From: Siphonodentalium dalli
Lineage: Eukaryota > Mollusca > Scaphopoda > Gadilida > Siphonodentaliidae
NCBI GenBank assembly: GCA_032622095.1
Contig: CP136068.1
Span: forward strand, 126,301,989 to 126,365,988
Length of the DNA: 64,000 nucleotides
Direction: 5' to 3'
Both the position numbers and the translations under genes were made by a program. How positions within the stretch are numbered: the first letter of the stretch is position 1; each line of letters begins with the position of its first letter. Below, in pieces: positions 11,440-62,000 of this stretch. The notes under the pieces are model-generated. The model saw nothing but the letters and a program-made list of their open reading frames with translations, ran no database searches and was not told where the DNA came from.

Positions 11440-11945
11440 ACGTAATGACATTAAAGGTACGGTTGGCCTTGGCGGTGGGTATCCTGTGAAAATATTTCCA
11501 CCCGTCAAAAACTGCCACAAACAGAAAGCACATCAAAATGTAGACAGACGTTGTCCGTATACAAATAAGAAATATCGCATAAACAGTATGTTATTGTCAA
11601 ATGTTTGACCATTGTTATGTAAACAAAAGCATAAAAAGTAACTTTTCTGGTGTTTGTTTATATTATGATGGTAAACATAAAGAGCGTACTTTGTTGGTGA
11701 ATTCCTGATATGGAACTAATAAAGAGCGTTTATGCCATTTGTGTGAATAGCCAGCAGCATTGTGTTGTATTCTGTAACACAGTCAGGCTCTTGATTAGGT
11801 AAAATATAGTAAATCGTTATGATAACATGCTGTTTACGCGATGGTCATGGTATATATGAACGAAACTGTATGCGTTTTAATGTTTTTTCTGTTTACGGTG
11901 ATTGGAACAAATATGAATATTTTCGACAACTAAGGCCTCACGTGC
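11440..11945 (-). mobile_element. Family A MITE, reverse-oriented diverged copy
   Basis: It begins ATTAAAGGTACGG and contains, in reverse complement, the GTTTACATAACA, ATGGTAAACATAAAGAGCG and AATAAAGAGCGTTTATG segments of the intact family member. The far end is degraded and no TTAA-flanked right end is seen. Confidence 0.6.
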
Positions 11946-11947
11946 CT

Positions 11948-12215
11948 TTAAACTCAAGAAAACCCGCGAAAACAAAACAAAATCACATTTAATGTTTTAA
12001 GTTATTTCCTTCATAAAAAGAATCTTCGTGATAATGAACCCTCTCAATACTTTAGAATATAGAATTAACCTTAAAATAACAAAAATCTTCGGAACACAGA
12101 ACCTTCGGAATAACGAACCTTCGGATTGGTGAACCTTCGGAATAGCGAACATTCAGAGAAATTTCGGAATAGTGGACCTTCGGGATAGTGAACCTTCGGA
12201 ATAGAGACATGCCCC
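11948..12215 (+). repeat. Direct repeat copy 1 with CTTCGGAATA minisatellite
   Basis: A unit starts CTCAAGAAAACCCGCGAAAA, passes through CTTTAGAATATAGAATTAAC and ends in short repeats of ACCTTCGGAATAGYGA. The same arrangement recurs about 480 bp downstream. The terminal motif echoes the TTCGGAG minisatellite of the 7.2-8.5 kb element. Confidence 0.65.
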
Positions 12216-25897: not shown

Positions 25898-28639
25898 TCA
25901 CAGAAGATCAACGTCATCCACAACAAAGTTCGTCTCGATTTCGCCGAGAGATTCTGTTTCAGAGGCAGATTCACAATGACATGCGTCCTCACTCGCTTCA
26001 GGAAAAGCGTCTTCTGTTGATCCGATGTCACCCGCAGCATTGTGTTCCATGATCAAAACAGGTGCACACCCGTTACCGTGCTCCTCCTTGGTCTCCATGT
26101 GCGGACTACATGCAGGGCTCACTTGATGAGCACGTGGGCTGCCCTCGTTAATGATACAAGACTTATCATGTACACAACTTCCGGAATCGGGCTCATTGAC
26201 TGATCCAGTTGCTGTTGGCGAAGGGTCTATATATTCCACCTCAAGCTCATATGATCCAGTTTCGCCCAATGTCTCGTTTTGCACAATTGCCTCTGATGCG
26301 TATGTTGGTTCGGGGGCTTCAGTTTTTGTCTGGTTCCCATTGACTGATCCGTTGTCAGTCGAAGTTTCTGCTAGTGATCCAGAAATACTTTCTGTATCAG
26401 ACTCATCCGCCGATCCTGTATCACCCGCTTCTGTTGGCGATGACGCTATGTTGTCTTTCTCAAAGCCATTGACCGACTCGGTTCCGTCCAAATCTTCTAC
26501 ATGTGATGAATACTCGTGTGCCGTCTCCAGCTTGTTCTCTGATCCAGTTTCAGTCGAAGTTTCCACTGGTGATGCAGATATATTTTCGGTATCATACTCA
26601 TCCGGTGATAGATCTGTCGTCAACAGAAGTGCATGAAACAGGTCACGCACTTCTGTTGGCGATGAAGCGATATTTTCATTCTCAAATATCTTGTCTGGTG
26701 TGGTTCCGTTCAAATCTTCTACATGTGCCGTCTCCAGTCGGTTTTCTGATCCAGTTGCAGTCGATGTTTCTGATGGTGATGCCGGTATATTTTCTGTCGC
26801 AATCCCACACACCGATCCTGTTTCGTTCAGAGGCTCATACGGCGATGCACTTACGATTCCACTTTCATGGCCATCGACTGTTTTGCCCAAAGGTTCTTCT
26901 TGCGAAGGAATATGTTCCGTCTTAAACGCAAGGATTGACCCTGTTTTTTCACTTGAAGCTTCTACAGGTGATGACACTATACTTGTTGTCTTAAGTCCAA
27001 TTACTGTTGATGTTTCACTTGCTGTTCCCGGTAGCTTTTCCGTCTCATTCTCTTTCACTGGCGCCGTATTTCCCACAGTTTGTGCTATATAGGAACGTGT
27101 AATCTCCCCATCGAGCAGTTCCAGTTCACATACGGTATTTTGTTCTGATCCAGTGCTCACGTGATGATGCTGAGTACCGTTTCCGCTCTCATGTTTATTG
27201 ATATGTACACATTGGTCCGAAAACTCCGTGACGGAGTGGGCTTCATTCTGATTTTTGGTCGTCCCGTATTCCCAGTTGGTACCCTCTTCTCTTTTCTGTC
27301 CCATATCTGATATCTTGCCACCACTTTCGTGAATGGCTGGACTCTGCGTTGTGGCGGCAAATTTGTTGGAATGTCCAAATCGATGGCCTGCCCACAGTTC
27401 AAGCTCGTTCCCATCGCTAAGTGTTCTATCGTGTTCAACTTTTGTTGTTCTGGTGAATATACCATGTGACTGGCGGAGCAACTGAGCCCAACCTCGACGC
27501 AACTGAGCCCAACCGGTACCAAAAGGAACCTTGTTATCGGACTCGATTTCATCATGACTCATAATGCATGTCGAATTTGACGAAGGTTCAGTCTCCTTCC
27601 TATCTGACTTCTTCAGACGAGTTGTATTGCCTTCCTCGACCTGAGTGATAGCTAGGACGCTCACGTTTGTAATATGAATGACACTAACTTTGTCTCTGAG
27701 TGTGAATAACCTCCGACAATGTTGGCGAAAATCTCTCCAAGTTAACAAGTAGACAAAGACGCGGATACATTTCTCGAAGTGGGCGAATATTTCAAAGAGG
27801 TTTGAAGCGACTTGCGTCCCCGACTCTCCATTGGCAGAGGGATTCTTGCTAGCAATCTCTGGCATTTTACTTGCGAATAATAGCGCGGCCATAAGAAGAA
27901 TGGTTCTTGCAATGTGGTCTGTTTTTGGGGTTATAGTCTTAGGTGTGTCGTGCTCTGTCTCGCTATCACTTCGATTGGTAGAGATGTCAACTTCGTCTTG
28001 AATGCCAAATTTCAAGAATGGCATGCTCAACCCCGTGATCAACACAACGGGAATGATCACTTCAATCACGACATCAAACAACGGCCAAGTGTTGGTGACA
28101 AATTGTTGGTAGTCGTTATCAACGTATGTGCAGATGCCTCCGGTAATGTCGAATCCGTGGACTAAGTGTATGTTCAGAAGGATGAGCACGCATGCTGATA
28201 TGACGAAGAACGATTGAAAATAAACTTTGCATCCTCCTGTTCTGGTGTTCGCAGCGAGCATGTATCTCAATATCGCATGGACGAGTATCCATGACGACAT
28301 TTGTGGCGTAAAGCTGCGAACAAAGGGAGCTAATGCGCATGCTATGGTGGATGTATCCTGTACGTCACTTCCGAATGCGGCACAGATCCACCCCCTGATC
28401 AGGTTGGTGAACACCGAAGCTACGTCGACCACGGCGAGAATTAGCAGAATGTTTGAAATACTGACGTCTATGGCTTCCTTCATTCGCCGCAGCACTAGAA
28501 TGGTTAATATGCTACTGAAGAGTGACGTCAGAAGCAAAATGGGTGGTAGAATACGCCACATCCCTCCAACGTCGCCGTTCGTACTGTTCGCATCTTGCGA
28601 CATCTTGGGTTGTCCAAAATAACAAATTCCGGATGCCAT
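25898..28639 (-). CDS. Rhodopsin-like GPCR with very long acidic tail
   Basis: A single uninterrupted 913-codon frame. Residues ~28-51, 60-82, 101-126, 140-161, 186-209, 244-264 and 278-300 form seven hydrophobic segments. An N-glycosylation site (N18-S-T) lies before the first, and C101/C170 are placed for the usual extracellular disulfide. LAVVD (D72) fits the conserved TM2 aspartate and a proline (P197) sits in TM5. The DRY motif is replaced by LRY (124-126), TM6 lacks the CWxP tryptophan, and the NPxxY position reads RVFVY. The frame ends VYLLTWRDFRQ before a C-tail of ~580 residues rich in Ser, Thr, Glu and Gly. The tail holds repeated units such as ENIxASPxETSTxTGS and HVEDLDGTE. The fold suggests a peptide-receptor-like class A GPCR at the plasma membrane; the ligand is unknown. 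The first ATG is used; M13 is an alternative start. The gene is intronless in coding sequence. Confidence 0.8.
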   Translation of the reverse strand: MASGICYFGQPKMSQDANSTNGDVGGMWRILPPILLLTSLFSSILTILVLRRMKEAIDVSISNILLILAVVDVASVFTNLIRGWICAAFGSDVQDTSTIACALAPFVRSFTPQMSSWILVHAILRYMLAANTRTGGCKVYFQSFFVISACVLILLNIHLVHGFDITGGICTYVDNDYQQFVTNTWPLFDVVIEVIIPVVLITGLSMPFLKFGIQDEVDISTNRSDSETEHDTPKTITPKTDHIARTILLMAALLFASKMPEIASKNPSANGESGTQVASNLFEIFAHFEKCIRVFVYLLTWRDFRQHCRRLFTLRDKVSVIHITNVSVLAITQVEEGNTTRLKKSDRKETEPSSNSTCIMSHDEIESDNKVPFGTGWAQLRRGWAQLLRQSHGIFTRTTKVEHDRTLSDGNELELWAGHRFGHSNKFAATTQSPAIHESGGKISDMGQKREEGTNWEYGTTKNQNEAHSVTEFSDQCVHINKHESGNGTQHHHVSTGSEQNTVCELELLDGEITRSYIAQTVGNTAPVKENETEKLPGTASETSTVIGLKTTSIVSSPVEASSEKTGSILAFKTEHIPSQEEPLGKTVDGHESGIVSASPYEPLNETGSVCGIATENIPASPSETSTATGSENRLETAHVEDLNGTTPDKIFENENIASSPTEVRDLFHALLLTTDLSPDEYDTENISASPVETSTETGSENKLETAHEYSSHVEDLDGTESVNGFEKDNIASSPTEAGDTGSADESDTESISGSLAETSTDNGSVNGNQTKTEAPEPTYASEAIVQNETLGETGSYELEVEYIDPSPTATGSVNEPDSGSCVHDKSCIINEGSPRAHQVSPACSPHMETKEEHGNGCAPVLIMEHNAAGDIGSTEDAFPEASEDACHCESASETESLGEIETNFVVDDVDLL

Positions 28640-33350: not shown

Positions 33351-33872
33351 TTAAAGGCACGGGCGGCGTTCGTTGCAGAAATATTCAAATTTGTTCAAAT
33401 CGCCATCAACAGAAGGAATATTAAAATATATATAGTTTTGTTCATATGCCAAACATAATCAGCGCGTAAATAGTATATTGTCGTCAAGACGTACCATGGT
33501 GTACGTAAACAAGAGCCCGCTCGTGTTACAGAAGTTTTGCTTAACAGCGCAATTATATTGGTTAATCACACACAAATGATATAAACGCTCTTTATTATTT
33601 CCATATCTGAAAACAGTAACAAATAACGCTCTTTATGTTTACCATATCCGGATCTAAACAAAAGCCAGGTTCTGTCACGTTTTTTTTTTTTGCTTTTGTT
33701 TACATAACAAAGGAAAAACATTTGACAATAACATACTGTTTATGCCATATTTCTGATTGCTATAAGAACACAGTCTGTCTATATTTTACTATTATTTCTG
33801 TTTATGGCGGTTTTTGACGGAGGTGAATATTTTAACAGCATACTCACCGCCAACGCCGCCCGTATCTTTAAT
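33351..33872 (+). mobile_element. Family A MITE, intact copy
   Basis: Termini TTAAAGGCACGGGCGGCGTT and AACGCCGCCCGTATCTTTAA are near-perfect inverted repeats of about 20 bp. The interior is non-coding and contains GTTTACATAACA and AACGCTCTTTAT motifs on both sides. Ends lie on TTAA or TA, so the target duplication is ambiguous. This copy defines the family in the window. Confidence 0.75.
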
Positions 33873-53710: not shown

Positions 53711-54433
53711 AGTACCCACTGTGACACCGTTTTCGTTTCAGGCGCGCTTTCTGAGCGACGTCATACTGGAAATTTCAATTCGCTCTTTGCTTAGGTCTTT
53801 GCTTTGCGATCGTTTTGAGGGTATAAATGACTGATTTAAAACAAAAAGGTGTGGATTTTGCGAGTTGCGTCTATCTCTTTAAGGTTAGAATGAACTAAAT
53901 AAGTAGAATTACGTCCCTTTCGTTTTTACACACAATCTCGAATATGAGTTTAAAAAATTCTGGCTCGCGATTGGCGTATATTTCAATTAAATTTACAAAT
54001 TCAAAAAATATAATACCCATGGCGTGAAAAATGTGGGTCTTCCCTAGTCTGAAATGCGTTGATGTCCAAACAATGACGGGAGAATAAGGCTGGGTATTTC
54101 CTTTCGTCAGCCGTACACATTTTGTGCAAAAAGATAGGTATGGCTCGGATAGTACTCATGCATGGCAAAATATTCGGGAAAGGTTGGTCTTCACGACGTT
54201 TATGATTTCGTGCAATTCGTAAGTGGCAAATTAGTGGCCGTGGCCACAAGTTAACACTGATGCCTATGGAAAACATTTAGTTCCTTCTAACCTGAAATAT
54301 AACTGTTCTAACGTATTGCAGGAGATAACGCAGAGCTTATAATAGAACTCATTTTGAGTCGATAATATGCTGAAAATGAGAGCGTTTTGGTCAGATTACG
54401 CTCTTTTCGTTTACGTGTTTTCAATATGGCCCG
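53711..54433. other. Non-coding; target repeat left of the palindrome
   Basis: The last ~130 bp (GCTGAAAATGAGAGCG... GTGTTTTCAATATGGCCCG) matches the left part of the 18.85-19.09 kb sequence. The remainder shows nothing recognisable. Confidence 0.45.
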
Positions 54434-55472
54434 CAGAAGAATAGGAGCCTCGTTGCCTTCACATCTAAAAATAGAATCTTTGGGGTCTAAAATTGGTTGT
54501 ACTAAAATATTCCCAAAATATCAAAACCCAAAAATTATTTTTCCAAAAAAAAAATTTCAAAACCCAAAAAATTTAAAAATTTCCAAACTTCCAAATTATC
54601 AAAACCCCAAAATTTTAAAACCCCAAAATTTCAAAAGAAAAAATTTCAAAACCCTCAAAATTATTTCTCTAAAAAAAAAAGTTTAAATAAAAAATTTATA
54701 ACGAGTTTTCGGTTTCTGATAATCTCGATATTAAAAAATGTCGAATGTTAAATTATTTGCGCGTAATATCTTTCGTTATTTTTTTTGTTCAAATATTTTT
54801 CATGAAATTATTAATCGATGTTTAGAAATAGCTTTATTGGACATTGTGACCATCGATATGAATGCATACATTCCAGTGTTTATCGGACGCAGTTCATATA
54901 ATTGTCATACCTGAAAATAGACACCATTACTTTTACATAAATAATAAAGAGCGTTTATTCTTTACACTCTCTATCCCATATGACAGGTGTGTATTATCGT
55001 GAATTATTGGAAGTATTGAGATGTACTATGTTGAATCACTAACGGTCGAAAATTGTAATGTGAAATTACAACCCTCCAGAATGAATTGTCATATTCGCTG
55101 TACACGCAATCACACACGCGACATTGGTGGTAACAATGTGTCTTTCACACCTTTGCTTTACCAAATGAATTATATTATTTCCCCGTTCACAGTTATATGC
55201 TATTCAGAAAACATATCGATTTAATGTCTGAACAAACGGGTTAGTATCAATTAAGGTTGATAAACTGTGTCATTCACACGATAATTAGTTAGCCAAAACA
55301 TGCATACATCCAGGTCACTCAATTATAGACATTGCTTTGATGACATTGTTATAACAACATTACGTAATAACCACTTATCATTCCATTCACACTTACGCTC
55401 ATTTTGTATACCAAAAATTTCAATATAAAGAAGATGACGAAAAGTTACCTATAATTCTGCAGTGGTTAAGCC

Positions 55473-55508
<36 letters not shown>

Positions 55509-55572
55509 GTCACCAAGCGACATAACATCCTGTTTTGATGATCCAATGGCCAATGTCCATGAAGATTTTATT
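55473..55572 (+). pseudogene. (AAC)n and displaced ATPase 5' fragment, left arm
   Basis: After twelve CAA/AAC units, about 60 bp beginning CACCAAGCGACATAACATCC repeats the start of the ATPase gene and stops in the codons for ...VHEDFI, then turns into unrelated sequence. The CAA run is in frame with it (glutamines followed by SPSDITSCFDD). On both sides stands AAGTTACCTATAATTCTGC, a ~165-bp-spaced direct repeat. Confidence 0.65.
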
Positions 55573-56570
55573 TCCGATGCAAGTCATATTTCAGACTAAC
55601 TCCTGAAAAGTTACCTATAATTCTGCTGTGGTTAAGCAGTCCATTATTTAGGGCATACCTGTATGTAGGCCTATCAGTGGATGAATAGTCTGCCGGAGAA
55701 GTACTGTGTAGACAGGTCTTGTCGTTAAGAGAGTCAGACGAGAAGTGAAGGCTCGGCTATTAAAACATAGTAATGCGATAGCGAACATCAAACGAGTCTG
55801 CGCACGCATATCTGTCAAAAGGATACAATGGCAGTCATTGGTCAATTTATCCCCGGTGTCAGCTCAGTACAATGGCAGTCATTGGTAAATTTATCCCCGG
55901 TGTCAGCTCAGTACAATAGCAGTCATTGGTCAATTTATCCCCGGTGTCAGCTCAGTACACAATCGGCACGAAGACGGAGGTCATAATTACTCTTACGAAT
56001 GAAGAGCGTTGAACATATACGAAATTATTACACGAATGAACTGAAATTTATATTTCACATCTTACCAACAACAGATACAGACATAGTCATAGTGTTATAC
56101 TATCTTACATGTACCCATGCTATGACATCATTCGAAGGGGCAATACACTCAAGGAGTTAAAGTGACACGAAACAAGGGACGTGATGTAATATTGGTGTAT
56201 GAATCTTAAAGGAACACAAGACACTCTAAAGGGACACTCATTATGAAGGAATGTTAACAATACAAGCGCACGAATGAAGAGCGTTGAACATATACGAAAT
56301 TACTACACGAATGAACTGAAATTTATATTTCACATCTTACCAACAACAGATACAGACATAGTCATAGTGTTATATTATCTTACATGTACCCATGCTATGA
56401 CATACTTAAAGGGGGATAATGCACACACGGAGTGTGGAATGTTAAAGTGACACGAGGTAAGGGACGTTATGTAATATTGGTGTGTGAATATTAAAGGAGC
56501 ATTCTCGCTATACAAACCCCCTCCCCACTTATAGATATATAACGAAGACGAGAATAACATGTTGATGAAG

Positions 56571-56576
56571 TTTATT
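56571..56576 (-). terminator. AATAAA signal, left ATPase gene
   Basis: Minus-strand AATAAA begins five bases after the stop codon, an unusually short distance that is mirrored in the other arm. Confidence 0.5.
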
Positions 56577-56581
56577 GAAAT

Positions 56582-58138
56582 TTAATCATTGTCTGAATCT
56601 TCGACCGTTAGATTTACTTCTAAGAGTTTCTTGAATTTTCTCATCGCTTCATCTGCAGCCCATTCATTATTATATCCGCGTTTGGTCAGTTTGACCATTT
56701 TCTTCATGATCGTGTTATGTATGGGTGATGTTTTCAATCGATACTGGTATTCTATTAATCGTCTATAACTTTTGAGAAACAGAACAAACTCTGTGTCGAT
56801 GGTATCCTCTTTTCCCGACATGCTCTCATCTCCCGAAATGCTCTCTTCTTCTTTCACATCATTGGTGACGCGTTTCATCATACTTTTGAATGTGTCCATC
56901 TCGTTGACACATCGCGCAGCTTTCTTAAGACCGAATACCGTTCTACTACCGACGACATTACCATCTTTTGAATCTGATAGCGCTCCCCGTTCATCTTCAT
57001 CTGTATCTTCTCCGAAGAGAGTTGTTTTTGTCTCGGACATAGCTCCGTGTTCATCCGGGTCCTCAGTTAATTTTCGTTTTAACTTATTTTCTTGACACCA
57101 GTTTTTTACGTGTCTCTGAACATCATAATGATCTGCGAACAAAAGCCCGCATTCATTACAAGGGTACGACATGTCTTCTCGAATGTTTTGACGGTTCTTC
57201 TTATTAATTTCATCGAGCTCACCAGGTGGCCGTATGTCGTTAGTATAGTCATTATGTTGACCCTGGGGCACAATATAATTATATGTTATGCCCTTCTGTT
57301 GACCAGGGAGTTCTCTGTCATCGTATTTCATCGCATTCTGTTGACCCTGGGTCTCAGTGTCTTTTGTATGTTTTTTCATCCCATTCTGTTCATCTGGGTG
57401 TTCTCTGTCTTTTTGGAGATTATATTTCATGCCATTCCATTCACCCCTATGTTGGTTCGTGTCCTCTTTTAGTACATTCTGTCGCAGACGTAATGTGTCC
57501 GGTGTTGCGGCTTTTAAATCCACCAGTAGGTAACCGTACGGTTCACTCGTCGCTTCCGAAAACTCTCGAACCATACGCTGAGGACATTCAGGATACATCT
57601 GTCTTGATAATGTTGAAATTAATCCCTTGTCGATTGGGTTATTGAACAATACCAAATATTGACAATTTCGTCGTTGCGTTGGATCTTTGTTGTAGTAGAA
57701 ATTCTGGTTCAAACTTATCAAAGATAAGTTCAAATGGTGACTTCCTTCGGAATGCAAATCATTAACTCTCTGGTCTTTTGATGAAGTTTGCATCAAGTCA
57801 TCGAGTATAACTAGATTTTTATACCGGGGGTTGATAAGCGAATCCAAGTTTGCTGGTATTCCTCGTATAAAGTTGACCTGAGGGGTGACGGTATACTTTA
57901 ATTCGTCATATAGGGGCTGCCAATATTTATAAAACCATATTATTCTGTCAGGTGCGGGTGATATTTTTGAGGCAGACTTTTGTAGTAAGGTTTTCACGAA
58001 GTATGTCTTACCACAAGATGTCGGTCCACTTACACATGCCGTGAATGGATGCTTGAAAATAAAATCTTCATGGACATTGGCCATTGGATCATCAAAGCAG
58101 GATGTTATGTCGCTTGGTGGCACCAAGCGACATAACAT
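56582..58138 (-). CDS. A32/FtsK-HerA-type packaging ATPase, left copy
   Basis: 518 codons from the first ATG; the frame is open a few codons further but with TTG. It has a P-loop GPTSCGKT at residues 38-45, a Walker B NLVILDD at 108-114 and a polar SLNQN motif at 142-146. A YLVLFNNP strand and an RQMYP...GYLLVDL block complete the nucleotide-binding fold of virion packaging ATPases. Residues ~228-304 are four or five 17-20-residue repeats (NGMK, QQ). A C2HC zinc finger follows (C327, C330, H343, C348), then an acidic linker and a helical lysine-rich C-terminus. It would be expected to pump genome DNA into a capsid; here it is an orphan. It differs from the right copy only near residue 7 (P versus A) and by silent change. 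Family placement is inferred from motifs. Confidence 0.7.
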   Translation of the reverse strand: MLCRLVPPSDITSCFDDPMANVHEDFIFKHPFTACVSGPTSCGKTYFVKTLLQKSASKISPAPDRIIWFYKYWQPLYDELKYTVTPQVNFIRGIPANLDSLINPRYKNLVILDDLMQTSSKDQRVNDLHSEGSHHLNLSLISLNQNFYYNKDPTQRRNCQYLVLFNNPIDKGLISTLSRQMYPECPQRMVREFSEATSEPYGYLLVDLKAATPDTLRLRQNVLKEDTNQHRGEWNGMKYNLQKDREHPDEQNGMKKHTKDTETQGQQNAMKYDDRELPGQQKGITYNYIVPQGQHNDYTNDIRPPGELDEINKKNRQNIREDMSYPCNECGLLFADHYDVQRHVKNWCQENKLKRKLTEDPDEHGAMSETKTTLFGEDTDEDERGALSDSKDGNVVGSRTVFGLKKAARCVNEMDTFKSMMKRVTNDVKEEESISGDESMSGKEDTIDTEFVLFLKSYRRLIEYQYRLKTSPIHNTIMKKMVKLTKRGYNNEWAADEAMRKFKKLLEVNLTVEDSDND

Positions 58139-59658
58139 CCTGCTTTGATGATCCAATGGCCAATGTCCATGAAGATTTTATTTTCAAGCATCCATTCACG
58201 GCATGTGTAAGTGGACCGACATCTTGTGGTAAGACATACTTCGTGAAAACCTTACTACAAAAGTCTGCCTCAAAAATATCACCCGCACCTGACAGAATAA
58301 TATGGTTTTATAAATATTGGCAGCCCCTATATGACGAATTAAAGTATACCGTCACCCCTCAGGTCAACTTTATACGAGGAATACCAGCAAACTTGGATTC
58401 GCTTATCAACCCCCGGTATAAAAATCTAGTTATACTCGATGACTTGATGCAAACTTCATCAAAAGACCAGAGAGTTAATGATTTGCATTCCGAAGGAAGT
58501 CACCATTTGAACTTATCTTTGATAAGTTTGAACCAGAATTTCTACTACAACAAAGATCCAACGCAACGACGAAATTGTCAATATTTGGTATTGTTCAATA
58601 ACCCAATCGACAAGGGATTAATTTCAACATTATCAAGACAGATGTATCCTGAATGTCCTCAGCGTATGGTTCGAGAGTTTTCGGAAGCGACGAGTGAACC
58701 GTACGGTTACCTACTGGTGGATTTAAAAGCCGCAACACCGGACACATTACGTCTGCGACAGAATGTACTAAAAGAGGACACGAACCAACATAGGGGTGAA
58801 TGGAATGGCATGAAATATAATCTCCAAAAAGACAGAGAACACCCAGATGAACAGAATGGGATGAAAAAACATACAAAAGACACAGAGACCCAGGGTCAAC
58901 AGAATGCGATGAAATACGATGACAGAGAACTCCCTGGTCAACAGAAGGGCATAACATATAATTATATTGTGCCCCAGGGTCAACATAATGACTATACTAA
59001 CGACATACGGCCACCTGGTGAGCTCGATGAAATTAATAAGAAGAACCGTCAAAACATTCGAGAAGACATGTCGTACCCTTGTAATGAATGCGGGCTTTTG
59101 TTCGCAGATCATTATGATGTTCAGAGACACGTAAAAAACTGGTGTCAAGAAAATAAGTTAAAACGAAAATTAACTGAGGACCCGGATGAACACGGAGCTA
59201 TGTCCGAGACAAAAACAACTCTCTTCGGAGAAGATACAGATGAAGATGAACGGGGAGCGCTATCAGATTCAAAAGATGGTAATGTCGTCGGTAGTAGAAC
59301 GGTATTCGGTCTTAAGAAAGCTGCGCGATGTGTCAACGAGATGGACACATTCAAAAGTATGATGAAACGCGTCACCAATGATGTGAAAGAAGAAGAGAGC
59401 ATTTCGGGAGATGAGAGCATGTCGGGAAAAGAGGATACCATCGACACAGAGTTTGTTCTGTTTCTCAAAAGTTATAGACGATTAATAGAATACCAGTATC
59501 GATTGAAAACATCACCCATACATAACACGATCATGAAGAAAATGGTCAAACTGACCAAACGCGGATATAATAATGAATGGGCTGCAGATGAAGCGATGAG
59601 AAAATTCAAGAAACTCTTAGAAGTAAATCTAACGGTCGAAGATTCAGACAATGATTAA
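58102..59658 (+). CDS. A32/FtsK-HerA-type packaging ATPase, right copy
   Basis: Mirror image of the left gene, starting head to head with it so that the first ~12 codons of each are the antisense of the other's 5' end. The initiating ATG lies left of the palindrome centre. It therefore exists only because of the inverted joint; residues 1-6 (MLCRLV) are probably not native. M19 (in DDPMANV) is a possible native internal start. Walker A, Walker B, internal 17-20-residue repeats, C2HC finger and C-terminal helices are all intact, with no stops. The open frame in both arms argues for recent origin. No partner genes are present nearby. Confidence 0.7.
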   Translation: MLCRLVAPSDITSCFDDPMANVHEDFIFKHPFTACVSGPTSCGKTYFVKTLLQKSASKISPAPDRIIWFYKYWQPLYDELKYTVTPQVNFIRGIPANLDSLINPRYKNLVILDDLMQTSSKDQRVNDLHSEGSHHLNLSLISLNQNFYYNKDPTQRRNCQYLVLFNNPIDKGLISTLSRQMYPECPQRMVREFSEATSEPYGYLLVDLKAATPDTLRLRQNVLKEDTNQHRGEWNGMKYNLQKDREHPDEQNGMKKHTKDTETQGQQNAMKYDDRELPGQQKGITYNYIVPQGQHNDYTNDIRPPGELDEINKKNRQNIREDMSYPCNECGLLFADHYDVQRHVKNWCQENKLKRKLTEDPDEHGAMSETKTTLFGEDTDEDERGALSDSKDGNVVGSRTVFGLKKAARCVNEMDTFKSMMKRVTNDVKEEESISGDESMSGKEDTIDTEFVLFLKSYRRLIEYQYRLKTSPIHNTIMKKMVKLTKRGYNNEWAADEAMRKFKKLLEVNLTVEDSDND

Positions 59659-59663
59659 ATTTC

Positions 59664-59669
59664 AATAAA
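59664..59669 (+). terminator. AATAAA signal, right ATPase gene
   Basis: Begins five bases after the stop codon, mirroring the left arm. Confidence 0.5.
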
Positions 59670-60667
59670 CTTCATCAACATGTTATTCTCGTCTTCGTTA
59701 TATATCTATAAGTGGGGAGGGGGGGTTTGTATAGCGAGAATGCTCCTTTAATATTCACACACCAATATTACATAACGTCCCTTACCTCGTGTCACTTTAA
59801 CATTCCACACTCCGTGTGTGCATTATCCCCCTTTAAGTATGTCATAGCATGGGTACATGTAAGATAATATAACACTATGACTATGTCTGTATCTGTTGTT
59901 GGTAAGATGTGAAATATAAATTTCAGTTCATTCGTGTAGTAATTTCGTATATGTTCAACGCTCTTCATTCGTGCGCTTGTATTGTTAACATTCCTTCATA
60001 ATGAGTGTCCCTTTAGAGTGTCTTGTGTTCCTTTAAGATTCATACACCAATATTACATCACGTCCCTTGTTTCGTGTCACTTTAACTCCTTGAGTGTATT
60101 GCCCCTTCGAATGATGTCATAGCATGGGTACATGTAAGATAGTATAACACTATGACTATGTCTGTATCTGTTGTTGGTAAGATGTGAAATATAAATTTCA
60201 GTTCATTCGTGTAATAATTTCGTATATGTTCAACGCTCTTCATTCGTAAGAGTAATTATGACCTCCGTCTTCGTGCCGATTGTGTACTGAGCTGACACCG
60301 GGGATAAATTGACCAATGACTGCTATTGTACTGAGCTGACACCGGGGATAAATTGACCAATGACTGCCATTGTACTGAGCTGACACCGGGGATAAATTGA
60401 CCAATGACTGCCATTGTATCCTTTGACAGATATGCGTGCGCAGACTCGTTTGATGTTCGCTATCGCATTACTATGTTTTAATAGCCGAGCCTTCACTTCT
60501 CGTCTGACTCTCTTAACGACAAGACCTGTCTACACAGTACTTCTCCGGCAGACTATTCATCCACTGATAGGCCTACATACAGGTATGCCCTAAATAATGG
60601 ACTGCTTAACCACAGCAGAATTATAGGTAACTTTTCAGGAGTTAGTCTGAAATATGACTTGCATCGG

Positions 60668-60732
60668 AAATAAAATCTTCATGGACATTGGCCATTGGAT
60701 CATCAAAACAGGATGTTATGTCGCTTGGTGAC

Positions 60733-60780
<48 letters not shown>

Positions 60781-60782
60781 GG
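60668..60782 (-). pseudogene. (AAC)n and displaced ATPase 5' fragment, right arm
   Basis: Mirror of the left-arm fragment, with sixteen trinucleotide units. The neighbouring sequence reads CCACAGCATAATTATA where the left arm has the equivalent of CCACTGCAGAATTATA. Confidence 0.65.
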
Positions 60783-61828
60783 CTTAACCACAGCATAATT
60801 ATAGGTAACTTTTCGTCATCTTCATTATATTGAAATTTTTGGTATACAAAATGAGCGTAAGTGTGAATGGAATGATAAGTGGTTATTACGTAATGTTGTT
60901 ATAACAATGTCATCAAAGCAATGTCTATAATTGAGTGACCTGGATGTATGCATGTTTTGGCTAACTAATTATCGTGTGAATGACACAGTTTATCAACCTT
61001 AATTGATACTAAGCCGTTTGTTCAGACATTAAATCGATATGTTTTCTGAATAGCATATAACTGTGAACGGGGAAATAATATAATTCATTTGGTAAAGCAA
61101 AGGTGTGAAAGACACATTGTTACCACCAATGTCGCGTGTGTGATTGCGTGTACAGCGAATATGACAATTCATTCTGGAGGGTTGTAATTTCACATTACAA
61201 TTTTCGACCGTTAGTGATTCAACATAGTACATCTCAATACTTCCAATAATTCACGATAATACACACCTGTCATATGGGATAGAGAGTGTAAAGAATAAAC
61301 GCTCTTTATTATTTATGTAAAAGTAATGGTGTCTATTTTCAGGTATGACAATTATATGAACTGCGTCCGATAAACACTGGAATGTATGCATTCATATCGA
61401 TGGTCACAATGTCCAATAAAGCTATTTCTAAACATCGATTAATAATTTCATGAAAAATATTTGAACAAAAAAAATAACTAAAGATATTACGCGCAAATAA
61501 TTTAACATTCGACATTTTTTAATATCGAGATTATCAGAAACCGAAAACTCGTTATAAATTTTTTATTTAAACTTTTTTTTTTAGAGAAATAATTTTGAGG
61601 GTTTTGAAATTTTTTCTTTTGAAATTTTGGGGTTTTAAAATTTTGGGGTTTTGATAATTTGGAAGTTTGGAAATTTTTTGGAAAAAATAAATTTTTGGGT
61701 TTTGAAATTTTTTTTTTGGAAAAATAATTTTTGGGTTTTGATATTTTGGGAATATTTTAGTACAACCAATTTTAGACCCCAAAGATTCTATTTTTAGATG
61801 TGAAGGCAACGTGGCTCCTATTCTTCTG

Positions 61829-62000
61829 CCCGCGCCATAAAACGAAATAACGGGTAGGTGTCCATTATCTGCTTATTGCAGAATAAAATAATCACATTAT
61901 GGACCTATTTCACATAAAAGGTCGATTATTTGCGTATTTGCTCGAGGATATGTTGACCTATCAGCAGTGGACAAAACGAATGTCAATCAAAAGCTGGAAC
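61829..62000. repeat. Target repeat right of the palindrome
   Basis: CGCCATAAAACG, TATCTGCTTATTGCAGAATA and AATAATCACATTATGGACCT match 19.09-19.15 kb (GGGCCATAAAAC, TATCTGCTTATTTCAGAATA). Joined to the left flank, this restores one copy of that family interrupted at its GGCCCGGGCC-like centre. Confidence 0.65.

What the first reader, a model, noticed from the sequence alone, without database searches (positions are those of the whole stretch)
54434..61828. 7.4-kb near-perfect palindrome with divergent packaging-ATPase genes
Seen: ~3.7-kb arms join at one base and each holds an intact 518-codon ATPase frame. Known: Maverick/Polinton and adintovirus-like elements carry an A32/FtsK-HerA packaging ATPase together with polymerase, integrase and capsid genes, none of which is here. 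Inference: either a derivative that retains only the ATPase and moves as a giant foldback unit, or a head-to-head replication intermediate fixed in the genome. A mobile unit made solely of an inverted ATPase gene pair would be new to me.
Basis: partly seen in the sequence, partly recalled or inferred. Interest (0 to 1): 0.88.

Follow-up and report, generated by a model that had tools for sequence, protein, structure and literature searches.

The report
Palindromic satellite transposons of a Polinton
The mirror-image DNA block is one of several hundred mobile elements in this 2.2-billion-base genome that are mirror images from end to end, share their ends with a virus-like transposon (a Polinton) and carry two mirrored copies of a DNA-packaging motor gene, which suggests that they live as satellites of that transposon.

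Summary
The palindrome is real. It is a discrete mobile element (54435-61827, 7393 bp) with 6-bp target duplications (GCCCGC). It is not a lone oddity. The ATPase Walker-A 38-mer occurs 774 times in the genome; of the first 100 listed, 86 lie in 43 divergent pairs. TSDs are perfect in 13 of 13 copies with both ends found; 2 of 13 have paralogous empty sites. Twelve other complete copies are palindromes of 8.3-8.7 kb; the window copy lacks about 1.1 kb at its centre. The ends match a 16-kb Polinton (integrase, PolB, protease, capsid-like gene), the likely helper. For 26 of 26 arms compared, the nearest relative is the other arm of the same element, so arms seem to be copied from one another each cycle. 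The gene is a zinc-finger/A32 ATPase that other molluscs carry beside Polinton-type integrase, 31% identical to the local Polinton's own. A second class with the same ends (107-aa gene, 533 places) and further ATPases show the same divergent pairing. Best reading: Polinton-dependent satellites that re-form their palindrome during protein-primed replication. Packaging hijack is inferred, not shown.

The parts
54429..54434 (.). 6-bp target-site duplication, left (GCCCGC)
54435..61827 (.). complete palindromic element, 7393 bp, ends AGAAGAATAG.../...CTATTCTTCT
54435..55430 (+). left TIR (about 1 kb, inner border approximate), of the kind shared with the 16-kb Polinton (88-89% between copy L010 and L026/L027)
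55430..56580 (+). left subterminal region without a long frame, with 44-bp tandem repeats (55824-55959) and a 146-bp pair 275 bp apart (55995-56140, 56270-56415)
56582..58138 (-). left-arm zinc-finger/A32 ATPase gene, 518 codons from ATG, read outward from the centre; the N-terminal finger and polyQ of other copies are missing here
58120..58120 (.). centre of symmetry (one unpaired base); about 1.1 kb of the centre of other copies is missing here, at the edge of the CAG/CAA (polyQ) tract
58102..59658 (+). right-arm ATPase gene, 518 codons from ATG; Walker A GPTSCGKT, Walker B LDD, C-terminal C2H2-like finger
59660..60810 (-). right subterminal region, mirror of the left (tandem repeat 60283-60418); borders approximate
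60830..61827 (-). right TIR (about 1 kb, inner border approximate), mirror of the left
61828..61833 (.). 6-bp target-site duplication, right (GCCCGC)

Best explanation
The element is one copy of a non-autonomous, whole-body-palindrome transposon that depends on a resident 16-kb Polinton. SHOWN: it is a discrete unit with TIRs and a 6-bp TSD; its family shares ~1-kb TIRs with that Polinton; it has no frame for integrase, polymerase or capsid but two mirrored copies of a zinc-finger/A32 ATPase gene; the two arms of each copy compared are far more alike than arms of different copies, right to the last bases; the architecture recurs with a second gene set sharing the ends and with further ATPases. 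INFERRED: Polinton integrase inserts it and Polinton protein-primed PolB replicates it from the shared TIR origins. During replication a strand that has copied one arm folds back or switches template at the centre and copies the same arm again, so every cycle rebuilds a palindrome with two identical arms (an adenovirus- or AAV-like 'snapback' genome that became a stable family). TIRs picked up from the helper by recombination are thereby duplicated onto both ends. The ATPase probably acts while the element is mobile; the likeliest role is loading the element's DNA into helper capsids.
For: Unit and TSD: 13 of 13 copies with both ends found (of 18) have identical 6-bp flanks; empty sites for 2 of 13 in paralogous repeats (L012 site in window 11452-11952; L020 site at L020:235-377). 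Copy number: 774 Walker-A 38-mers (up to 3 mismatches, control 0); 43 pairs, all divergent, and 14 singles among the first 100, one of them at the cut end of the list. Helper: C1:3742246-3758397 has an ATPase, rve integrase + chromodomain, Peptidase_C5-like protease (20.4 bits, cut-off 21.3), DNA_pol_B_2 and a 420-aa capsid-like protein (assignment recalled; no Pfam hit). Over 44 end pairs on C1, a 42-mer of that capsid-like gene is in 9 of 10 spans above 15 kb and 0 of 34 smaller; the ZnF-ATPase 38-mer in 0 of 10 and 9 of 34 (exact matches only in both). Re-copying of arms (13 elements): own partner nearest for 26 of 26 arms; arm-arm differences 0.32/0.27/0.18% (TIR/subterminal/ATPase) against between-element means 7.1/1.8/0.5%; non-majority letters on both arms 510, on one arm 75; end tetramer identical in 43 of 44 pairs, shuffle mean 4.7, maximum 15. 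TIR exchange: the Polinton TIR's nearest non-self relative is the ATPase palindrome L020 at 1.2%, below the smallest distance between any two of the 13 palindromes (1.7%). Selection: both-arm variants 19 N:12 S, below neutral 3.93:1 (p=0.022); one-arm variants 30 N:9 S plus 2 stops, fit neutral (15 elements); pN/pS 0.45 between and 0.87 within elements. Recurrence: 107-aa gene 533 places, 35 divergent and 1 direct pair plus 28 singles among the first 100; further ZnF-ATPases, 10 divergent pairs among 59 hits, the one centre read 96.9% self-inverse over 800 bp.
Against: No replication intermediate, transcript, particle or excision was seen. The N:S ratios of both-arm and one-arm variants do not differ significantly from each other (Fisher p=0.19). 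Arm homogenisation could in part be gene conversion in the chromosome. The local Polinton has its own ATPase, so the need for the satellite's is not obvious. Use of the Polinton's integrase and polymerase rests on shared TIRs and TSD length. TIRs interleave with Polinton TIRs but do not sort cleanly by end tetramer, and the L019 TIR is at least 11% from every other. Singles (14 of 100 and 28 of 100 places) and the truncated or interrupted copies L021, L022, L024, L025 were not explained one by one. Lists of the genome search are truncated, so an autonomous element with this very ATPase may exist unseen.
Confidence: 0.77

Rival explanations
1. The palindrome formed once; copies spread as double-stranded units (cut-and-paste or plain copying), and arms are kept alike afterwards by gene conversion between arms in the chromosome, as in Y-chromosome palindromes.
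For: Close inverted repeats are good gene-conversion partners (general knowledge); arms are very similar in every copy measured.
Against: Identity reaches the very ends and the end tetramer (43 of 44 pairs), and also holds for the ~1-kb TIRs of the 16-kb Polinton, which lie 14 kb apart (0.7% different). Arm differences vary less than twofold along the arm (0.32/0.27/0.18%) and fit neutral decay (30 N:9 S), as expected for clocks reset at insertion. The window copy has a new perfect centre, easiest to make by re-copying one arm.
Confidence: 0.15
2. Packaging is not the role: the ATPase is a passenger or a regulator (for example a zinc-finger DNA-binding repressor of the helper), and the palindrome persists only because snapback molecules replicate fast (defective interfering DNA).
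For: A sister palindrome class (L031) with the same ends carries a shortened protein without the ATPase domain (189 aa: zinc finger + C-terminal part) plus a 107-aa gene, so the ATPase is not needed by every member. The full gene has two finger-like motifs (both below Pfam's cut-offs).
Against: Walker A and B residues G25, K26, D95, D96 are invariant across 27 aligned relatives; the frame has no stop in 79 of 82 listed copies (a list that favours intact copies); both-arm variants show some purifying selection; the 107-aa gene is 74% identical to a Polinton gene next to the capsid-like gene, so both cargo sets look virion-related.
Confidence: 0.35
3. The ATPase palindrome is a deletion derivative of an autonomous Polinton of this genome that carries the same ZnF-ATPase but was missed.
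For: Mya and Mytilus proteins join the same kind of ATPase to integrase/chromodomain or protease, so such Polintons exist in molluscs. Genome hit lists are truncated.
Against: None of 150 listed integrase hits lies within 15 kb of the 59 further ATPases listed; 0 of 10 large spans with the same ends hold the ATPase 38-mer (exact matches only); gene orientation relative to the TIR is opposite to that of the 16-kb Polinton's ATPase.
Confidence: 0.3
4. Assembly artefact (palindromic read errors or mis-joined haplotypes).
For: Long-read chemistry can make false palindromes (general knowledge).
Against: Hundreds of copies; TSDs, arm-specific substitutions and empty sites in those read.
Confidence: 0.01

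Closest known systems
Maverick/Polinton transposons (PMC8097293: passages and first part of the Discussion read; PMC6431247: passages and section 10 read)
   Same: 6-bp TSD, AG...CT ends, ~1-kb TIRs shared with a Polinton in the same genome, A32-type packaging ATPase.
   Different: No polymerase, integrase, protease or capsid frame; about half the length; the whole body is an inverted duplication; two copies of one gene.
AAV snapback subgenomes / defective interfering particles (PMC8235507: abstract and outline seen)
   Same: Self-complementary genome in snapback form, carrying one gene region, postulated to act as a helper-regulating satellite.
   Different: AAV snapbacks are by-products of a parvovirus; here the palindrome is an integrated, multi-copy, diversified lineage of Polinton type. 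Palindromic adenovirus defective genomes are recalled; no paper on them was seen (listings).
Phage satellites (PICI/SaPI) that carry their own small terminase (PMC6092414: passages read)
   Same: Helper-dependent element bringing its own DNA-packaging gene; helper supplies the rest.
   Different: Bacterial; not palindromic (recalled); packaging redirection there is experimental, here only inferred.
Foldback transposons (Galileo, Tm1; search listing only; FB recalled)
   Same: Very long inverted repeats occupying much of the element.
   Different: Other transposase superfamilies (P, Mutator; from listed titles and abstracts); no packaging ATPase and no known renewal of the palindrome each cycle (recalled).
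Virophages and Polinton-like viruses (recalled; listings)
   Same: Parasites related to Polintons.
   Different: They carry capsid and replication genes (recalled); this element carries neither.

Membership tests
Polinton/Maverick (autonomous) | 6-bp TSD | tested here: met
   13 of 13 copies with both ends found, of 18
Polinton/Maverick (autonomous) | TIRs shared with a Polinton | tested here: met
   88-89% over ~1 kb, L010 against L026/L027; best pair 98.8%, L020 against L026
Polinton/Maverick (autonomous) | PolB and rve integrase encoded | tested here: not met
   window element: no frame of 120 aa or more besides the ATPase and frames of 120-126 aa overlapping it in reverse; L010 and L011: no other open stretch above 133 codons
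Polinton/Maverick (autonomous) | capsid and protease genes | tested here: not met
   capsid-like 42-mer (exact) in 0 of 34 small spans with these ends
Non-autonomous Polinton / satellite | helper with the same ends in the same genome | tested here: met
Non-autonomous Polinton / satellite | mobilised in trans by that helper | not testable with these tools
   inferred from shared TIRs and TSD length
A32-like packaging ATPase | Pfam Pox_A32 above gathering score, Walker A/B | tested here: met
   25.7 bits against cut-off 22.8; invariant G25 K26 D95 D96 among 27
A32-like packaging ATPase | FtsK/HerA-type fold by structure | tested here: inconclusive
   model pLDDT 68.7, pTM 0.46; no PDB match at E<=0.001
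Snapback / defective-interfering-like genome | arms copied from one another each cycle | tested here: met
   26 of 26 arms nearest to own partner; 510 against 75; conversion in the chromosome not fully excluded
Foldback transposon (FB/Galileo/MULE) | P- or Mutator-type transposase | not tested
   no such search was made; no long unassigned frame in the element
Packaging-hijacking satellite (PICI-like) | own packaging gene directs own DNA into helper capsids | not testable with these tools
   gene present; action not shown

The most novel reading that the evidence does not exclude
A genome hosts a guild of satellite transposons with obligately self-complementary (palindromic) genomes that parasitise a virus-like Polinton: they replicate by snapback on the helper's protein-primed polymerase, rebuild both arms from one in every cycle, swap TIRs with the helper, and encode their own zinc-finger-guided packaging motor (or, in the sister class, a capsid-associated small protein) to divert helper particles, a eukaryotic counterpart of phage satellites with their own terminase.
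Probability: 0.35. Interest if true: 0.9.

Novelty: new variant of a known kind. Interest (0 to 1): 0.8.

Why it matters
Whole-body palindromic transposons in hundreds of copies, with both arms renewed each cycle, would give a readable genomic record of snapback replication, otherwise seen as defective viral genomes. A Polinton satellite that brings its own packaging ATPase would be indirect evidence that animal Polintons make particles worth hijacking; Maverick particles have not been observed (abstract of PMC8097293). Each element also carries a built-in clock (arm-to-arm differences).

Tried and rejected
Assembly artefact: rejected. Single accident: rejected. Simple deletion of the local Polinton: rejected by ATPase identity of 31% and orientation. 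Relatives in viral contigs: none confirmed with one protein or with an alignment. Structure: model of modest confidence and no convincing PDB match, so no fold claim. Own-genome adjacency of ZnF-ATPase and integrase: none within the truncated lists. I expected TIRs to sort by end tetramer across palindromes and large elements; they interleave but do not sort that way. Host species not identified; mollusc relatives of the ATPase suggest but do not prove a mollusc-like host. Print: four library searches showed no palindromic Polinton; only titles and abstract starts were seen (5 of 5, 9 of 9, 20 of 49, 40 of 44 papers listed), and the library lacks most subscription papers. My note said 14 of 14 TSDs; the right count is 13 of 13 (corrected).
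Full report
Observation. The window holds a 7393-bp element, 54435-61827, whose halves are reverse complements with 8 substitutions and 6 gaps; the inner 1603 nt of each arm are identical around one unpaired base at 58120. It is bounded by a perfect 6-bp duplication, GCCCGC. Each arm has one long frame, 518 codons from ATG, read outward from the centre. Pfam puts it with Poxvirus A32-type packaging ATPases, 25.7 bits against a cut-off of 22.8, with C2H2-like finger hits below their cut-offs.

A family, not an accident. The genome (2.23 Gb, 9 contigs, unnamed) was searched with one arm and the 17 best further loci were read. Eleven of 17 are palindromes in one unbroken self-alignment of 7.9-8.8 kb (L009-L019); L020 and L023 are palindromes in pieces; L021, L022, L024 and L025 are truncated or interrupted within the stretch fetched. 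Both ends were found in 13 of 18 copies (window included) and all 13 have identical 6-bp flanks. For 2 of 13 a paralogous empty site lies in held sequence: a 91.5% match in the window at 11452-11952 for L012, and L020:235-377 (91.6%) for L020. A 38-mer of the ATPase occurs 386+388 times with up to 3 mismatches, control 0; of the first 100 places, all exact and on C1-C4, 86 form 43 divergent pairs and 14 stand alone, one of them because the list ends there. Some 330-390 ATPase palindromes in the genome is my estimate.

What the window copy lacks. Twelve other complete ATPase palindromes (L009-L017, L019, L020, L032) are 8312-8732 bp long and palindromic through a centre of trinucleotide repeats. 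Their ATPase frame is 580-582 codons in the three arms I looked at that are intact (right arm of L010, both arms of L011) and 573-574 in L032, starting with a C2H2-like finger and polyQ; the left arm of L010 is out of frame there. The window copy lacks about 1.1 kb of this centre; the junction lies at the edge of the CAG/CAA tract and each frame now borrows its first codons from the opposite arm. A perfect one-base centre is most simply made by copying one truncated arm twice (inference).

The helper. The end pattern AGAAGAATAGNNNNCTCGTT occurs 641+626 times (control 0). Among the first 100 places (C1), 44 adjacent end pairs include 10 of 15.5-17.5 kb and 11 of 8.2-8.75 kb. One 16-kb element was read in two pieces: an ATPase (221 aa; Pox_A32 below cut-off), rve integrase with chromodomain (E 8e-15 and 8e-8), adenovirus-type protease (E 4e-4, just below cut-off), DNA_pol_B_2 (E 1.5e-49) and a 420-aa frame that I take for the capsid protein from memory. 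A 42-mer of that frame is present 88+94 times and in 9 of 10 spans above 15 kb but 0 of 34 smaller ones; the ZnF-ATPase 38-mer shows 0 of 10 and 9 of 34 (exact matches only).

Arms are renewed each cycle. In 13 elements (L009-L017, L019, L020, L032, window; the near-duplicate L018, L023, L033 and incomplete copies were left out) each of the 26 arms is closest to the other arm of its own element. Arm-to-arm differences are 0.32% in the TIR, 0.27% in the subterminal part and 0.18% in the ATPase, against means of 7.1%, 1.8% and 0.5% between elements; non-majority letters sit on both arms 510 times and on one arm 75 times. The variable tetramer near the ends agrees in 43 of 44 pairs, shuffle mean 4.7 and maximum 15. 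Simple inheritance of two independent arms cannot give this. Protein-primed replication with fold-back or template switching at the centre can. TIRs of palindromes and of large elements interleave in a tree; the TIR of the Polinton L026 is 1.2% from that of the ATPase palindrome L020, below the smallest distance between any two of the 13 palindromes, 1.7%. I read this as TIR exchange with the helper followed by duplication onto both arms. Against a tidy picture, TIRs do not sort by end tetramer, and the L019 TIR is at least 11% from all others.

The gene. The palindrome ATPase is 31% identical to the local Polinton's (E 4e-24) but 67-69% identical in the core to its closest listed relatives, which include two scallop proteins. 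In Mya three database proteins join such a ZnF-ATPase to rve integrase or chromodomain, and in Mytilus one joins it to a chromodomain and one to a Peptidase_C5 domain, so it is a regular Polinton gene elsewhere (inference from these joined gene models). In 15 elements, variants on both arms (inherited) are 19 non-synonymous to 12 synonymous, below the neutral 3.93:1 (p=0.022); one-arm variants (after insertion) are 30 to 9 plus 2 stops and fit neutrality (p=0.69); the two classes do not differ significantly from each other (Fisher p=0.19). Pairwise pN/pS is 0.45 between and 0.87 within elements. Selection in the mobile phase is therefore suggested, not proven.

The architecture recurs. Eight of the 34 smaller spans on C1, picked by hand, were read: all 8 have inverted arms of 1.2 kb or longer, though in L035 (1.2 kb) that is hardly more than a TIR. 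L031 (9.5 kb, 97.8% self-inverse) carries a 189-aa zinc-finger protein made of the C-terminal part of the ATPase gene and a 107-aa gene 74% identical to a Polinton gene beside the capsid-like gene. A 51-mer of the 107-aa gene occurs 270+263 times (up to 2 mismatches, control 0); the first 100 places hold 35 divergent pairs, 1 direct pair and 28 singles, and 7 of the 44 C1 spans contain it. A query with a Mya protein found further ZnF-ATPases: 59 hits, 10 divergent pairs; the one centre read, 800 bp, is 96.9% self-inverse and encodes a related start, 47% identical with polyQ counted. The three such hits on the listed part of C1 do not lie in spans with exact AGAAGAATAG ends, so these may use other ends or have decayed ones.

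Mechanism and status. Shown: unit, TSDs, shared TIRs, two mirrored genes, arm renewal pattern. Inferred: integrase and polymerase in trans from the Polinton, snapback renewal, ATPase used for packaging. Nearest precedents: AAV snapback subgenomes with a postulated satellite role (PMC8235507, abstract and outline) and phage satellites with their own small terminase (PMC6092414, passages). Vertebrate Mavericks have 6-bp TSDs and sizes within about 10% of 17 kb (PMC8097293, passages and first part of the Discussion). No palindromic Polinton turned up in the library searches (listings only).

Noticed in passing
G000 C1:25825090, C3:112391793, C3:293381343, C5:236842634, C6:8205451, C6:118372922, C7:20590775: Seven of nine neighbouring Polinton-integrase hits (of 150 listed) are convergent pairs 4.7-10.2 kb apart, possible palindromes with an integrase pair in another Polinton family.
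   Followed up: partly
G000 C5:130151901-130155051 (L041 = centre) and nine further pairs: Further ZnF-ATPases, also divergently paired about 1.8 kb apart; the one centre read is 96.9% self-inverse.
   Followed up: partly
G000 C1:43715854-43725428 (L031): Sister palindrome class with a 189-aa zinc-finger gene and a 107-aa Polinton-like gene; a 51-mer of the latter occurs 533 times genome-wide.
   Followed up: partly
G000 C1:159746518-159773502: Six element ends on one strand about 5.4 kb apart, apparently a tandem array.
   Followed up: no
G000 C4:173054671-173059086: An ATPase pair with unusual spacing (4378 bp) that encloses another ZnF-ATPase at 173056281, possibly a nested insertion.
   Followed up: no
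window 25898-28639 (-): Intronless 913-aa frame that looks by eye like a seven-helix receptor with a long acidic tail; no Pfam hit.
   Followed up: partly
window 11452-11952 and 33351-33853: Two copies (91% and 75%) of a dispersed repeat into which the palindrome L012 is inserted elsewhere.
   Followed up: partly
L017/L018 (G000 C4:181395500-181415300): Two neighbouring palindromes with the same left flank and the same end type, apparently a segmental duplication that includes the element.
   Followed up: no
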